Origin: Rivularia sp. PCC 7116
Lineage (GTDB): Bacteria > Cyanobacteriota > Cyanobacteriia > Cyanobacteriales > Nostocaceae
Length of the DNA: 64,000 nucleotides
Reading direction: 5' to 3'
Assembly (NCBI RefSeq): GCF_000316665.1
Contig: NC_019678.1
Coordinates: 1,984,001 to 2,048,000, forward strand
Shown: in pieces, positions 56,062 to 64,000 of the stretch
Position numbering within the stretch: the stretch's first letter is position 1
How the letters are laid out: each line of letters starts with the position of its first letter
Notes under the pieces: model-generated
What the model was told of the DNA's origin: nothing
Database searches by the model: none
The model's input: only the letters and a program-made list of their open reading frames with translations
Position numbers and translations under genes: made by a program

Positions 56062-56895
56062 TTATTTTTTTATTTTTTTAGCAAGGGCAATTTCGATACT
56101 TTGGTTATCGTGGATAGGAAATAATAAGATATTAATCATTAGGGAAAGCATTTTTGAGGCTTTATGAATCCCAAGTTGTTCAATGAAGGGAGTAAGCCAA
56201 CCATTGTAGTATCCAAAATCAAGAAAATCGTCCAAATTGGCAAAATCGATTTTGGGTTCAAACGTCTCTATCTGGCAGACTTCAAAATCATTTTCCTCCA
56301 ACATTTCTATGACTTCGCTATGCCCTTCAGGACTGGACACGATATCATAATCCAACTTAGAATTTCCGGAAACCCAGTAAATCAATTTACTTGCCAGAGA
56401 ATCTTCGAGTTTTCTCAGGTTGGGGTAGCTAGTCATTGTTTGACCAATCAATGACCAATATCCTCCTTCATCAAGTAAGTTCCAAATTTTGGGAGCTAGT
56501 TCCCTCATCGGGACATAACCTGTTATAAAGTGACTACAAATGAGATCGAATGACCGATTGGCATAATGTTTTTCAAGATTGGTTGCGTCATCAACGATAG
56601 TTCTAAGGTTGGGAATTTTATTCTTTGCAATTTCAAGCATTTTCTCTGAGATATCCACACCAAAGGGGCTGACTTCGCCTTCACATAGTAAAGCGATTTG
56701 CTCCAAAAATGAGCCTGTACCAATACCAATATCAAGAACTTGCAAAGGTGTTTTAGATTGTAAAAGATTTGTATTTTGGAGTTGAATAATTCCTTTTTGA
56801 TAAGTAGAAGCATATATACCTTTAGCATCTATATCAAAATTAGGCGCAATTATTTCATCGTATTGGCGCTGAATTATGTTGTGATTGTATATCAT
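56062..56895 (-). CDS. SAM-dependent class I methyltransferase
   Basis: A 277-residue methyltransferase: a short N-terminal helix, then motif I VLDIGIGTGSFLEQI, motif II GVDISEKMLEIAKNK, motif III ATNLEKHYANRSFDLICS and a C-terminal all-alpha cap (about 200-277). It lacks a membrane helix. The family (UbiE/COQ5-like in layout) gives no substrate. It is the last gene of the minus-strand cluster, 81 bases after the aminotransferase, so it may methylate the product's amino or head group. Its 3' end abuts a TnpB scrap. Confidence 0.85.
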   Translation of the reverse strand: MIYNHNIIQRQYDEIIAPNFDIDAKGIYASTYQKGIIQLQNTNLLQSKTPLQVLDIGIGTGSFLEQIALLCEGEVSPFGVDISEKMLEIAKNKIPNLRTIVDDATNLEKHYANRSFDLICSHFITGYVPMRELAPKIWNLLDEGGYWSLIGQTMTSYPNLRKLEDSLASKLIYWVSGNSKLDYDIVSSPEGHSEVIEMLEENDFEVCQIETFEPKIDFANLDDFLDFGYYNGWLTPFIEQLGIHKASKMLSLMINILLFPIHDNQSIEIALAKKIKK

Positions 56896-56976
56896 TTAAT
56901 TTCAATTTCCTTAATGTTTACTATTGGGATTCAAGTAATATTTGATGCCACTATTAGAGAATATATAAAAGCTCAA

Positions 56977-59007
56977 TTAAATTATTGCATTGATAGCTGA
57001 AGCAAATAGCTGAATGAACGGTTTATTCAATACCTGTGTAATTGTGGAACAAATCTGACTCAGTTCTTCTGGTGTTATAGTTAGTGGTGGAGTAATTTTA
57101 AGTACATTGGTTTCACCCTGACAAAAACCCACTAATACTGGATAGGAAGAGTGTTTAAACATACTGCTAATGTACAGCAAAAACAGTTGTTTGCGAAACC
57201 AGCACTGAGGCCAATTGGTATCATTTAACTCTATTCCAATTAACAAGCCGAATACCCGCACATCTCGGACGGATTTACACGAAGCGAGGCGATCGCACAA
57301 CAATTTTTCGAGCAGTTTTCCTGATTTTGTTACTCGCTCTTCAAGTTTCATCTCTTCAGCCTTGTGTAGCACGTTTAACACCGTGCGGTAGCCAACGGGG
57401 TAGTTATATCGTTCTTGAATCTCTTTGATTAAGCTTGACCCCAGAGCGTTTAATTTCTGCTGAATATTTTCTGTATATTGCACAATGCTAAATGGAAACA
57501 TCATGTCAGAAGTTCCTTTACCTAAAACTAATAAGTCTGGTTTCAAACCATGTAAGAGCGAGCGAGCAAAAAGCCCTGTTCGGAATATTCCCGTTTGCAC
57601 CTCATCAATCAACAGCAAATAGCCATACTTCTCCCGATTTGTCTGGAGATATTTTATCGTTGTCTCTGGTATTGCTCGAACGCCACTTACACCTTGTATT
57701 AACTCAATTTGAACTACCGCTATGGAATACTTCTGCATCACTGCATCTAATTGTGCAACTGCATCCTCAGCAAACGGATCGATATAAACGACATCAGCAT
57801 AGAGTGGATCGATGTTCTGTTTGTATAAACTGCTCCAAGTTCCTGTCAGTGCAAATAGGGTTTTGCCACCAAAGCCACCTTTTAAGACAAGGACATGTCG
57901 CCGAGGATGTTGAGCCGTTAACGCAATTCTGAGGGCGTTTTCCACTCCAGATGCTCCACTGACAGCAGGCACTATATTCTCTATTCCCGTATATTGGTAT
58001 AACAAATTAGTAAGCTCAATTCGCTCATCTTTGTCTTCTATACCTTGTAGTTCTTCTACATAATTTGGTGGATTATGACCTCTAATGCTACAGGCAACAC
58101 CACTGACGCAATCGAAAATTTTGTGACCTCCGGAATATATAAATCCACCAGAAGCCTCAACATCTGCGGTCATAAATTTTAGCAGGGCGGAATTGTATTT
58201 ATTACCAAATATTTTCTTGCGATATTTAATATCGCTGTGTATTAGCTCCAAATCTTCGGCAATACTGTTGAAGAAAATAGCATCTGCATATTCAAGACAA
58301 CGCATAAAGTGCAGACTAGAAACAGTATTAGGTTGAAAAGTTGTTGAGTGGAATGTTTTTTTATTGGGTTGATTCCAATATTGGTAAAGCTTTTTTTGGG
58401 CTGTAAATGCGCCGAAAGGAACCTCGTTATTCACGAATGATTCATCGAAAATTGTGATATCTGGGCTGAGTTGCTTTGCCTTGGTGAATTTTGAATCTCT
58501 TAGTTGAGCAAGGCTCTCGCGACTCACACAGGTGATTATTAAAGCATTATTATGTTCCACCAATTGAAGTATCTTTGTGACTGTATCATCGCACAGTGTA
58601 AGTATGACTAGGAAACCGAAGCTATCCGAAAATCTATTTATGTTTTGAATTTCTTCTGTACTACTAACTACAGTGAGACCGGGCATAAAATCAACATACT
58701 CGCCCCTAACTTTGGTTTTGACGAACGATCCAAGTCTATCCATAGGATCGAAAATCAATCCGTTTGTCGGGCGGTTGGCTAAACTCAAGTTATAGCGGGC
58801 AAGTTTAATTGCACCACTTAGAGCCTCATCAAAACTGTTGGCAAGAAAAGTCTGGTAGTCTTCCTGTTGATTCCATGTAGTTCTCACGTACTCGCTCAAG
58901 CACAAGCAGGTCTGTGCAACATATGGGTTCAGATAAAGTCTGTAGAAGTTGGGGAGCCGATTACGGATTATTTCCTCAAATGTTTCGTTTAGGGAAGGTT
59001 TATGCAT
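56977..59007 (-). CDS. Class III aminotransferase with an extra degenerate aminotransferase half
   Basis: A 676-residue protein. Residues about 290-676 form a complete class III PLP aminotransferase: the phosphate site AVSGASGVENALRIA, LLIDEVQTGIFRTG (Asp at about 468) and the Schiff-base Lys at about 497 in LVLGKGTSD. Residues 1-290 contain what looks like the C-terminal half of a second one: PDITIFDESFVNNEVPFGAF occupies the place of the Lys-containing segment but has no Lys there, followed by TFHSTTFQPNTVSSLHFMRCL as in the HGTTFGGNPLAxAA region. So one active and one degenerate unit are fused. The 15-base gap to the FAD gene indicates an operon. Substrate unknown; in this cluster an amino or keto lipid precursor is likely. 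Confidence 0.82.
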   Translation of the reverse strand: MHKPSLNETFEEIIRNRLPNFYRLYLNPYVAQTCLCLSEYVRTTWNQQEDYQTFLANSFDEALSGAIKLARYNLSLANRPTNGLIFDPMDRLGSFVKTKVRGEYVDFMPGLTVVSSTEEIQNINRFSDSFGFLVILTLCDDTVTKILQLVEHNNALIITCVSRESLAQLRDSKFTKAKQLSPDITIFDESFVNNEVPFGAFTAQKKLYQYWNQPNKKTFHSTTFQPNTVSSLHFMRCLEYADAIFFNSIAEDLELIHSDIKYRKKIFGNKYNSALLKFMTADVEASGGFIYSGGHKIFDCVSGVACSIRGHNPPNYVEELQGIEDKDERIELTNLLYQYTGIENIVPAVSGASGVENALRIALTAQHPRRHVLVLKGGFGGKTLFALTGTWSSLYKQNIDPLYADVVYIDPFAEDAVAQLDAVMQKYSIAVVQIELIQGVSGVRAIPETTIKYLQTNREKYGYLLLIDEVQTGIFRTGLFARSLLHGLKPDLLVLGKGTSDMMFPFSIVQYTENIQQKLNALGSSLIKEIQERYNYPVGYRTVLNVLHKAEEMKLEERVTKSGKLLEKLLCDRLASCKSVRDVRVFGLLIGIELNDTNWPQCWFRKQLFLLYISSMFKHSSYPVLVGFCQGETNVLKITPPLTITPEELSQICSTITQVLNKPFIQLFASAINAII

Positions 59008-59022
59008 ATTTATATATATTTA

Positions 59023-63020: not shown

Positions 63021-63833
63021 CTAGCTACGTACTTTCTTGATAATTATATCAAAATACCAATTAATTATCGGGGCTATTAAACTATGCCAAACTCGTAATA
63101 ATTTAATTTTTAATCCTGGTGTAATTGCAAAATCTTTTCTCTTAATACCGCGTAAAATTACTCTTGCAACATTTTCAGCACTCCAAGTTTTAGCCGTACC
63201 TGTAATCAATTTTGTTTCAGCAGGTTTGGTCAAATTTTCTGTCGCTAACTGTGGAGTATCGGTGTCAGGAGGATAAACAATTGAAACATGAATTCCCAAG
63301 TTTTTTAGTTCTCCCCGCAATGACTCAGCTAATCCTCGTAAAGCGAATTTAGATGGACTATAAGGAGTATAGCCGTAAATACCAATTAATCCGGCAGCAG
63401 AAGATATAATGACGATATGTCCTCGCTGCTTCTGCATCATTGATGGTAAAACTGACTTAATTGCATAGAGAGTACCAAAATAATTGATTGCCATTGTGTC
63501 TTCAAACACTTTCAAGGAAAGTTCGTGAAAGTAACCTGGATAAGCTATTCCAGCAGAAGTAATTAATAATTCGGGTGTACCTATTTGCTCAATAGCTGTG
63601 CTAATTGCTTCCTCTATTTGAGCAAGGTTTTCTACCGATGCAGAAACAGAAATAATGCGTTGTTCTGGATATACTCTTGCTGCTTCTATTTCTGCTTTAG
63701 CTGCTGAGAGAATGTCTTGACGGCGAGCAATTATAGATATATGCGCTCCTTCTTTGGCTAACATAATTGCAGTTGCTTTACCAATACCACTAGAACCACC
63801 AGTGATAATTGCGTGTTTTTGATAAAATTTCAT
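63021..63833 (-). CDS. Short-chain reductase resembling 3-ketodihydrosphingosine reductase
   Basis: A 270-residue SDR with cofactor motif TGGSSGIGKA, NADPH-favouring ARR after the second strand, the active-site Ser (SSAAG), and YSPSK (Tyr and Lys at about 158 and 162). The segment YPPDTDTP, followed by ATENLTKPAETK, and the later DFAITPG are, from memory, hallmarks of 3-ketodihydrosphingosine reductase (KDSR/TSC10), which reduces the ketone from serine palmitoyltransferase. It starts 31 bases after an alpha-oxoamine synthase, its natural partner. No C-terminal membrane anchor is obvious. The exact substrate (C18 or other) is unknown. Confidence 0.82.
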   Translation of the reverse strand: MKFYQKHAIITGGSSGIGKATAIMLAKEGAHISIIARRQDILSAAKAEIEAARVYPEQRIISVSASVENLAQIEEAISTAIEQIGTPELLITSAGIAYPGYFHELSLKVFEDTMAINYFGTLYAIKSVLPSMMQKQRGHIVIISSAAGLIGIYGYTPYSPSKFALRGLAESLRGELKNLGIHVSIVYPPDTDTPQLATENLTKPAETKLITGTAKTWSAENVARVILRGIKRKDFAITPGLKIKLLRVWHSLIAPIINWYFDIIIKKVRS

Positions 63834-63864
63834 TTTAGGTTCCGAAGCTTAATTTTATAAAAAT

Positions 63865-64000
63865 CTAGTTTTGCAGCTTTTTTAGCTCTTTAATAAGAGC
63901 GTCTACAGTAAACTTAATTTGTTCTTCTGTATGCTTGGAAGTTATAAAAAAACGCAACCGAGCCATATTTTCTGGTACTGATGGGTAAATCATTGGCTGA
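63865..64000 (-). CDS. Alpha-oxoamine synthase (serine palmitoyltransferase-like), C-terminal part
   Basis: I translated the last 45 codons before the window edge on the minus strand: [20 protein letters not shown], then [20 protein letters not shown] and TAG. This is the C-terminal signature of PLP alpha-oxoamine synthases (serine palmitoyltransferase, KAPA synthase), R-x-R-F-F-x-T/S-x-x-H-T-E. The catalytic Lys lies outside the window. The KDSR-like gene directly downstream favours serine palmitoyltransferase over biotin synthesis, because no bio gene is nearby. Confidence 0.8.

What the first reader, a model, noticed from the sequence alone, without database searches (positions are those of the whole stretch)
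56062..64000. Candidate sphingoid-type lipid (or amino-alcohol lipid) cluster in a cyanobacterium
Seven co-oriented minus-strand genes with short or overlapping spacings combine an alpha-oxoamine synthase, a KDSR-like reductase, a GT4 glycosyltransferase, a phosphatidylserine-decarboxylase homologue, a Rossmann-FAD fusion, a bipartite aminotransferase and a methyltransferase. The first two are the core of sphingolipid synthesis: condensation of an amino acid with an acyl-CoA or ACP, then ketone reduction. Cyanobacterial membranes are generally described as galacto-, sulfo- and phosphatidylglycerol lipids. A reasonable path is sphinganine-like base, then glycosylation, then head-group changes by decarboxylation, oxidation, transamination and N-methylation. 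The order of these steps is inference. I know of no described pathway with this gene set.
Basis: partly seen in the sequence, partly recalled or inferred. Interest (0 to 1): 0.88.

Follow-up and report, generated by a model that had tools for sequence, protein, structure and literature searches.

The report
Cyanobacterial sphingosine-type glycolipid gene cluster
A cyanobacterium carries a gene cluster that probably builds a sugar-bearing, sphingosine-like lipid from a fatty acid and an amino acid, which would help explain how cyanobacteria could make such lipids at all; the last decorating steps remain guesswork.

Summary
In detail: seven tightly packed minus-strand genes at 56062-64000. The synthase runs off the window; in full it is a 764-aa thioesterase-ACP-AOS fusion, followed by desaturase, ACP, CMAS-type and second methyltransferase, fatty acyl-AMP ligase (FAAL) and MFS genes. 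The core recurs: AOS relatives in 19 of 386 cyanobacteria, own included; in 30 fetched loci FAAL in 24, a 62-81% KDSR in 8, GT4 in 5. G409 has FAAL-desaturase-ACP-CMAS-AOS-Rieske-KDSR in a row. The AOS is in a 100/100 clade with Pseudomonas PKS-linked AOSs and RkpG; where that clade joins SPT and BioF is unresolved. P. fluorescens SgaB, from a PKS/AOS pair, is a serine-preferring SPT (PMC12134224). Hence a carrier-fed sphingoid-type base, reduced and glycosylated. PSD, FAD protein, aminotransferase and last methyltransferase were in 0 of 30 loci; their chemistry is inference. The PSD is the genome's only one and keeps its catalytic residues. New variant of a known kind.

The parts
63865..64000 (-). 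3' end of the thioesterase-ACP-alpha-oxoamine synthase fusion (764 aa; whole gene = L002:8865-11159, window-equivalent 63865-66159)
   Evidence: GHSLGG, GLDS and PLP-lysine motif GTLSKSF present
63021..63833 (-). KDSR-like short-chain dehydrogenase (270 aa), YSPSK and YPPDTDTP motifs
   Evidence: 62-81% homologues in 8 of 30 AOS loci
61647..62876 (-). GT4 glycosyltransferase (409 aa) of a subfamily found near AOS in other genomes
60767..61642 (-). phosphatidylserine-decarboxylase homologue (291 aa), the only PF02666 match of the genome; LGST, D104, D154, H156 kept, E. coli H147 replaced by F159
59023..60789 (-). protein with a weak FAD_binding_4 (VAO-type) domain and an unassigned N-terminal half (588 aa)
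   Evidence: own genome only in 386 and in 217
56977..59007 (-). bipartite class-III aminotransferase (676 aa): degenerate N half, intact C half
56062..56895 (-). SAM methyltransferase (277 aa)

Best explanation
A biosynthetic cluster for an exported, glycosylated sphingoid-type lipid. FAAL activates a free fatty acid and loads an ACP; the desaturase and CMAS-type methyltransferase modify the acyl-ACP; the ACP-AOS condenses it with an amino acid, most likely L-serine, with loss of CO2, giving a 3-ketosphinganine; the fused type-II thioesterase edits or releases; the KDSR-like enzyme reduces the ketone to a 2-amino-1,3-diol; GT4 adds a sugar; the MFS protein exports. Tailoring, inferred only: FAD oxidase plus class-III aminotransferase plus methyltransferase turn a hydroxyl into an (N-methyl)amine on sugar or base; the PSD homologue removes a carboxyl from a serine-type head group. 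Shown by sequence: genes, domains, motifs, the AOS clade, and recurrence of the FAAL-ACP-AOS(-KDSR)(-GT4) core. Inferred: substrates, step order, export, product.
For: AOS clade of 34 rows, 100/100, with Pseudomonas PKS-linked AOSs, RkpG and cyanobacterial and planctomycete AOSs; ours is 56-57% identical to three Pseudomonas AOSs. [quoted passage not shown] In 30 fetched loci: FAAL 24, KDSR (55% or more) 8, GT4 5, MFS 4. In 80 genome-contig loci: FAAL 43, KDSR (55% or more) 10, GT4 4; FAAL and AOS in one ORF in 32. G409 carries FAAL-DES-ACP-CMAS-AOS-Rieske-KDSR in a row on one strand. In G391 and G433 the gene after KDSR is MGDG-synthase-like. GT4 subfamily: single-copy in 8 of 18 AOS genomes; within about 10 kb of AOS in 5, 27 kb off on the same contig in 1, on other contigs in 2. 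Parallel: Caulobacter AasR-AcpR-SPT (PMC9386255, passages).
Against: The place of the AOS clade between SPT and BioF is unresolved, and ours is below the cut-offs of the NCBIfam AOS models it hits, SPT models included. SgaB's own sequence was not in the tree. The amino acid cannot be read from sequence. 22 of 30 loci lack a KDSR of 55% or more and 25 lack the GT4; the thioesterase is in 0 of 30, desaturase and CMAS homologues in 1 each. PSD, FAD, aminotransferase and last methyltransferase are in none of the 30 and 80 other AOS loci, so they could be riders. Several cyanobacterial AOSs are fused to ORFs of about 2500-2760 aa (the Planktothrix plasmid one is annotated type I PKS), a PKS-like feed. 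No N-acyltransferase was looked for, so free base or ceramide is open. RkpG, in the same clade, sits near a capsule gene.
Confidence: 0.65

Rival explanations
1. The core makes a sphingoid-type base, but PSD-FAD-aminotransferase-methyltransferase belong to a different, recently acquired pathway that only abuts it.
For: PSD: in 386 genomes, besides our own, 11 genomes with weak matches (at most 45.2 bits), all labelled only 'same phylum'; FAD protein own only in 386 and 217; aminotransferase own only in 386 at E <= 1e-45; 0 of 30 and 0 of 80 AOS loci.
Against: Same strand with 4- and 15-nt gaps and a 23-nt overlap; GT4, which lies near AOS elsewhere, is between KDSR and PSD. No CDP-OH-type phosphatidylserine synthase passes cut-off in the genome, so the PSD has no ordinary substrate in view.
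Confidence: 0.15
2. The AOS uses glycine, alanine or another amino acid, so the product is an amino-ketone or amino-alcohol natural product that is not a sphingoid base.
For: An ACP-AOS fusion serves tambjamine synthesis (TamD, conference abstract in PMC4698589); some AOS loci hold uncharacterised ORFs of 1000-2000 aa and no KDSR of 55% (G468, G511; G022).
Against: KDSR-like gene 31 nt away; the nearest biochemically tested relative known to me, SgaB, prefers serine (PMC12134224).
Confidence: 0.15
3. An Rkp/Wcb-like lipid anchor for a surface polysaccharide: the amino-alcohol lipid is a carrier and not an end product.
For: RkpG and its SDR neighbour are relatives (46%; 41%) and lie near a gene annotated capsule biosynthesis (rkp names recalled).
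Against: No polysaccharide export or polymerase family among the genes profiled between window 56062 and L002:19024; FAAL is present in 24 of 30 cyanobacterial loci, although some others are PKS-like.
Confidence: 0.07
4. An ordinary BioF (biotin) enzyme with unrelated neighbours.
For: bioF is the best NCBIfam score of the AOS domain (350 bits); forcing its clade with BioF is not rejected by the tree (p-AU 0.157).
Against: Below the bioF cut-off; a separate BioF exists in the genome (452 bits); fused to TE and ACP, beside KDSR and FAAL; 56-57% identical to PKS-linked AOSs.
Confidence: 0.02

Closest known systems
PfSgaA-PfSgaB(-SgaC) of Pseudomonas fluorescens MYb115 (PMC12134224)
   Same: AOS probably of the same clade (Pseudomonas PKS-linked AOSs are 56-57% identical to ours; SgaB itself not compared), carrier-bound acyl donor, KDSR homologue presumed for the next step
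   Different: SgaA is an iterative PKS; here FAAL, ACP, desaturase and CMAS would supply the chain, and GT4, PSD, FAD, aminotransferase and MFS genes are added
Caulobacter-type SPT with AcpR and AasR (PMC9386255)
   Same: dedicated acyl-ACP synthetase plus dedicated ACP feeding a PLP synthase
   Different: ours is far below the NCBIfam SPT cut-offs; the Caulobacter enzyme was not in my tree; TE-ACP-AOS fusion here
RkpA/RkpG/RkpH of Sinorhizobium meliloti (gene names recalled; locus L196)
   Same: AOS plus KDSR-like SDR side by side; 46% and 41% identical
   Different: beside a 7.5-kb gene and near a capsule gene
TamD-type ACP-AOS fusion (PMC4698589)
   Same: ACP fused N-terminal to AOS
   Different: tambjamine pyrrole pathway
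Mooreaside A of Moorea producens (PMC6272925)
   Same: glucosylated C17 sphingoid ceramide from a cyanobacterium; in Moorena bouillonii (same genus under its later name, recalled) FAAL, ACP-AOS and KDSR genes lie together (L114)
   Different: no gene was linked to it in the passages I read; different species

Membership tests
Carrier-linked AOS clade (Pseudomonas PKS-linked, RkpG) | groups with these AOSs apart from SPT, KBL and BioF rows | tested here: met
   100/100 for 34 of 40 rows; SgaB itself not in the tree
Carrier-linked AOS clade (Pseudomonas PKS-linked, RkpG) | serine palmitoyltransferase activity | not testable with these tools
   shown for PfSgaB in PMC12134224
Canonical bacterial SPT | NCBIfam SPT equivalog cut-offs | tested here: not met
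   315/640, 279/500 and 218/670 bits
BioF | TIGR00858 cut-off | tested here: not met
   350 of 426 bits; own BioF 452
BioF | clade shared with BioF | tested here: inconclusive
   best tree places the clade elsewhere, but holding it with BioF is not rejected, p-AU 0.157
KDSR/TSC10 | groups with TSC10 and not with other SDRs | tested here: inconclusive
   8jat is second-best by E and the only one of 60 shown PDB matches to reach past residue 225; tree 94/92 with RkpH and TSC10, TSC10 on a long branch and itself without the YPPDTDTP motif
Phosphatidylserine decarboxylase | PF02666, LGST self-cleavage site, D90/D142/H144 equivalents | tested here: met
   roles from PMC7952604
Phosphatidylserine decarboxylase | PS-synthase partner in the genome | tested here: not met
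   two CDP-OH_P proteins, one PgsA, neither above the pssA cut-off; PLD-type synthases not tested
FAAL | AMP-binding plus DIP2-like C domain | tested here: met
   the NCBIfam FAAL models shown are all below cut-off; FAAL-specific insertion not checked
VAO-type FAD enzyme | FAD_binding_4 above cut-off | tested here: inconclusive
   25.1 of 26.4 bits; best PDB match galactonolactone dehydrogenase, E 5e-4
Class-III aminotransferase | PF00202 and PLP lysine motif | tested here: met
   C half only; N half degenerate

The most novel reading that the evidence does not exclude
The cluster makes a new class of lipid: a methyl-branched or cyclopropanated sphingoid base whose sugar carries an N-methylated amine made by FAD oxidase and aminotransferase, with a PSD-family enzyme recruited away from phosphatidylserine to decarboxylate a serine-type head group. 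The same FAAL-ACP-AOS core would make many cyanobacteria and planctomycetes unrecognised sphingoid-lipid producers.
Probability: 0.25. Interest if true: 0.86.

Novelty: new variant of a known kind. Interest (0 to 1): 0.68.

Why it matters
PMC8895605 (2022; parts 1-3 of 8 read) states that only two sphingolipids had been reported from cyanobacteria and that a genetic basis had yet to be reported; its Nostoc candidate gave no 3-ketodihydrosphingosine in E. coli. This cluster and its relatives give a specific, testable gene set (FAAL, ACP, AOS, KDSR, GT4), parts of which lie together in Moorena, the genus of one of the two reported lipids, and FAAL-AOS single-chain fusions in planctomycetes and Desulfobulbaceae. 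It would extend PKS-derived sphingolipids (SgaAB) to a route fed by fatty-acid activation, and puts a PSD-family enzyme in a new setting.

Tried and rejected
BioF reading: disfavoured by cut-off, separate BioF and neighbours, not by the tree (p-AU 0.157). My first AU test held only ours and own BioF together; it was trivial and I do not rest on it. Because of this I raised the BioF rival from 0.01 to 0.02; other odds stand. Housekeeping PSD reading disfavoured: one PSD, no pssA above cut-off.

Sister clusters with the tail genes: sought with the FAD protein in 386 and 217 genomes, plasmids and genome contigs (63 pattern matches, no relative; patterns came from one protein, so divergent copies could be missed); with the aminotransferase in 386 genomes at E <= 1e-45; with the PSD in 386 and plasmids (32 records, best about 34% identical among those listed). 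None found. The aminotransferase has a 24% relative over nearly its whole length inside a multidomain protein of a Methylorubrum extorquens megaplasmid, where the lysine motif is changed.

First AOS tree held one out-of-frame row (Planktothrix, 36 stops); that row was replaced, and two distant own paralogues dropped. A first count on it (FAAL 46, AOS seen in 77) used an overlap filter that hid ORFs and no coverage limit; one search is the recount. Structure prediction was never obtained. Promoter-like sites 62 against 69.9 in shuffles, terminator-like 16 against 12.0; no tandem repeats.

Literature searches (open-access PMC): cyanobacteri + alpha-oxoamine synthase + sphingo 6 papers; SPT + cyanobacteri + bacterial sphingolipid 6; fatty acyl-AMP ligase + cyanobacteri + oxoamine synthase 0; PSD + oxoamine synthase + biosynthetic gene cluster 0; oxoamine synthase + polyketide synthase + biosynthetic gene cluster 15; FAAL + sphingolipid + biosynthetic gene cluster 0; oxoamine synthase + cyanobacteri + gene cluster 2. 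PMC3908369 (passages) describes rkp/wcb PKS clusters; not used further.

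
Full report
OBSERVATION. The window is G000:C1:1984001-2048000 of an 8.73-Mb genome. Seven minus-strand genes lie at 56062-64000 with gaps of 81, 15, -23, 4, 144 and 31 nt. Pfam confirms methyltransferase, class-III aminotransferase, PS decarboxylase, GT4 glycosyltransferase and short-chain dehydrogenase; the FAD domain is just under its cut-off, and the N-terminal part of that protein has no family.

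BEYOND THE WINDOW. L002 (position = window minus 55000) shows that the synthase is a 764-aa fusion of a RifR-type thioesterase, an ACP and an alpha-oxoamine synthase. Divergently follow a fatty-acid desaturase, an ACP, a CMAS-type methyltransferase and a second methyltransferase (best NCBIfam: phthiotriol dimycocerosate methyltransferase, below cut-off); then, on the minus strand, a fatty acyl-AMP ligase and an MFS transporter. Key motifs are intact: GHSLGG in the thioesterase, GLDS in both ACPs, the PLP-lysine motif and DEAHS in the AOS, three His boxes in the desaturase.

WHAT THE AOS IS. The genome has its own BioF (452 bits against a cut-off of 426), while ours scores 350. In a tree of 40 rows, ours sits in a fully supported clade of 34 with cyanobacterial, planctomycete, Desulfobulbaceae, Pseudomonas PKS-linked and RkpG-type AOSs; the six reference rows (two bacterial SPT-type, two eukaryotic SPT, KBL, own BioF) are outside. 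With KBL and BioF as outgroup the clade is next to eukaryotic LCB2 (99/96), but long branches are in play, and holding the clade with BioF (p-AU 0.157), with BioF and KBL (0.211) or with bacterial SPT (0.227) is not rejected. So the clade is distinct and its deeper place is open. Ours is 56-57% identical to AOSs of three Pseudomonas PKS/AOS loci. In P. fluorescens MYb115 such a pair, SgaA-SgaB, makes C24-C28 sphinganines, and purified SgaB prefers L-serine almost exclusively over alanine and glycine (PMC12134224, passages). SgaB's own letters were not available, so its membership of the clade rests on genus and architecture.

THE CORE RECURS. AOS relatives at E <= 1e-100 are in 19 of 386 cyanobacteria including our own, and by my count of the listed rows of 465 bits or more in 22 of 217 genomes of the family, own included. 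I fetched 30 loci (29 from 28 G-genomes, one Planktothrix plasmid; seven further rows were not fetched as regions; stretches of 10-40 kb, some cut by contig ends). In them FAAL is in 24, a 62-81% KDSR in 8, GT4 of 39-41% in 5, MFS in 4, desaturase and CMAS homologues in 1 each; the thioesterase, PSD, FAD protein, aminotransferase, the last methyltransferase (56062-56895) and the second methyltransferase after CMAS in 0. G409 has FAAL, desaturase, ACP, CMAS, AOS, a Rieske oxygenase and KDSR in a row on one strand, which ties our flanking genes to the synthase. G391 has FAAL, acyl-CoA dehydrogenase, ACP and AOS in one 1720-aa protein, KDSR (81%) next, then an MGDG-synthase-like glycosyltransferase; G433 also has KDSR followed by such a gene, and G078 a weaker GT28 match; the G101 gene tested near KDSR had no family. 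Among the 80 kept loci of the genome-contig scan (capped), FAAL (40% or more) is in 43, KDSR (55% or more) in 10, GT4 in 4, and PSD, FAD protein, aminotransferase and last methyltransferase in 0; 32 ORFs hold FAAL and AOS together, two of them cut by contig ends.

THE GT4. In 18 AOS-bearing genomes searched whole, this subfamily (E <= 1e-40) is single-copy in 8 and absent in 10. It lies within about 10 kb of AOS in 5 (own, G255, G262, G157, G011), 27 kb away on the same contig in G123, and on other contigs in G296 and G360. G255, G262, G157 and G011 were chosen because the linkage was already seen, and the first three are one genus. Genomes without AOS were not searched. No PDB match at E <= 1e-5.

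THE REDUCTASE. By E-value the best PDB match is a two-domain hydroxyacyl-CoA dehydrogenase (2et6); TSC10 (8jat) is second and covers residues 6-249, the only one of the 60 shown to reach past 225. Ours and the eight KDSRs of other AOS loci share YPPDTDTP and YSPxK; RkpH (41% identical) and TSC10 lack YPPDTDTP. The tree puts them with RkpH and TSC10 at 94/92, but TSC10 sits on a long branch.

THE TAIL. The PSD is the only PF02666 match in the genome. In 386 genomes 11 others match weakly (at most 45.2 bits), all labelled only 'same phylum'. D104, D154, H156 and LGST at 258-261 match E. coli D90, D142, H144 and the cleavage site; E. coli H147 is F159, and phosphate-binding S166 aligns with a histidine (the last by counting along the alignment). 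In PMC7952604 (passages) H144 is essential, H147 mutants still cleave and S166A is near normal. So the enzyme is probably active, and its head group may differ. No pssA-type protein passes cut-off. The aminotransferase has a degenerate N half and a C half with the lysine motif. An oxidase plus a class-III aminotransferase is a usual way to turn an alcohol into an amine (aminoglycoside pathways, recalled), and a methyltransferase could N-methylate it; this is inference.

LITERATURE. PMC8895605 (parts 1-3 of 8): two cyanobacterial sphingolipids reported, no genetic basis, and the Nostoc punctiforme AOS is BioF-like and made no KDS in E. coli. PMC6272925 (passages): mooreaside A, a glucosylceramide from Moorea producens; Moorena bouillonii carries FAAL, ACP-AOS and a 65% KDSR together (L114). 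PMC9386255 (passages): the Caulobacter acyl-ACP synthetase, ACP and SPT trio is a working parallel.

VERDICT. The core reading as a carrier-fed, glycosylated sphingoid-type lipid pathway is well supported but not proven; serine is likely; the tail chemistry is open. New variant of a known kind (SgaAB-like AOS plus FAAL feeding plus unusual tailoring).

Noticed in passing
window 51969-54100: A cation-efflux ORF (Pfam match only to positions 4-57 of 198) overlaps the start of a DUF3604 ORF whose match starts at profile position 29; GC is 49.6% at 52001-54000 against about 37% on either side. Looks like a recombination or assembly junction.
   Followed up: partly
L003:10017-12566 (window-equivalent 85017-87566): LuxE-like and LuxC-like genes side by side, an acyl-activating and acyl-reducing pair.
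   Followed up: no
L126, L129, L136, L148, L179 and other planctomycete and Desulfobulbaceae loci: FAAL and AOS in one ORF of about 1100-1230 aa: possible unrecognised sphingoid-base synthases.
   Followed up: partly
L041:14203-19365: A 1720-aa protein joining FAAL, acyl-CoA dehydrogenase, ACP and AOS; might desaturate the acyl chain before condensation.
   Followed up: no
L005:10210-15234 (Methylorubrum extorquens AM1 megaplasmid): Relative of the bipartite aminotransferase (24%, both halves) inside a protein with ACP, hydrolase and FMO-like domains; its lysine motif is changed.
   Followed up: partly
L047:17185-18453: In G433 an Orn/Arg/DAP-type PLP decarboxylase gene lies directly before ACP-AOS: another decarboxylase in an AOS locus, unrelated to PSD.
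   Followed up: no
L080:4485-6083 and L083:8053-9708: B12-binding radical SAM proteins with DUF4070 beside AOS in two genomes.
   Followed up: no
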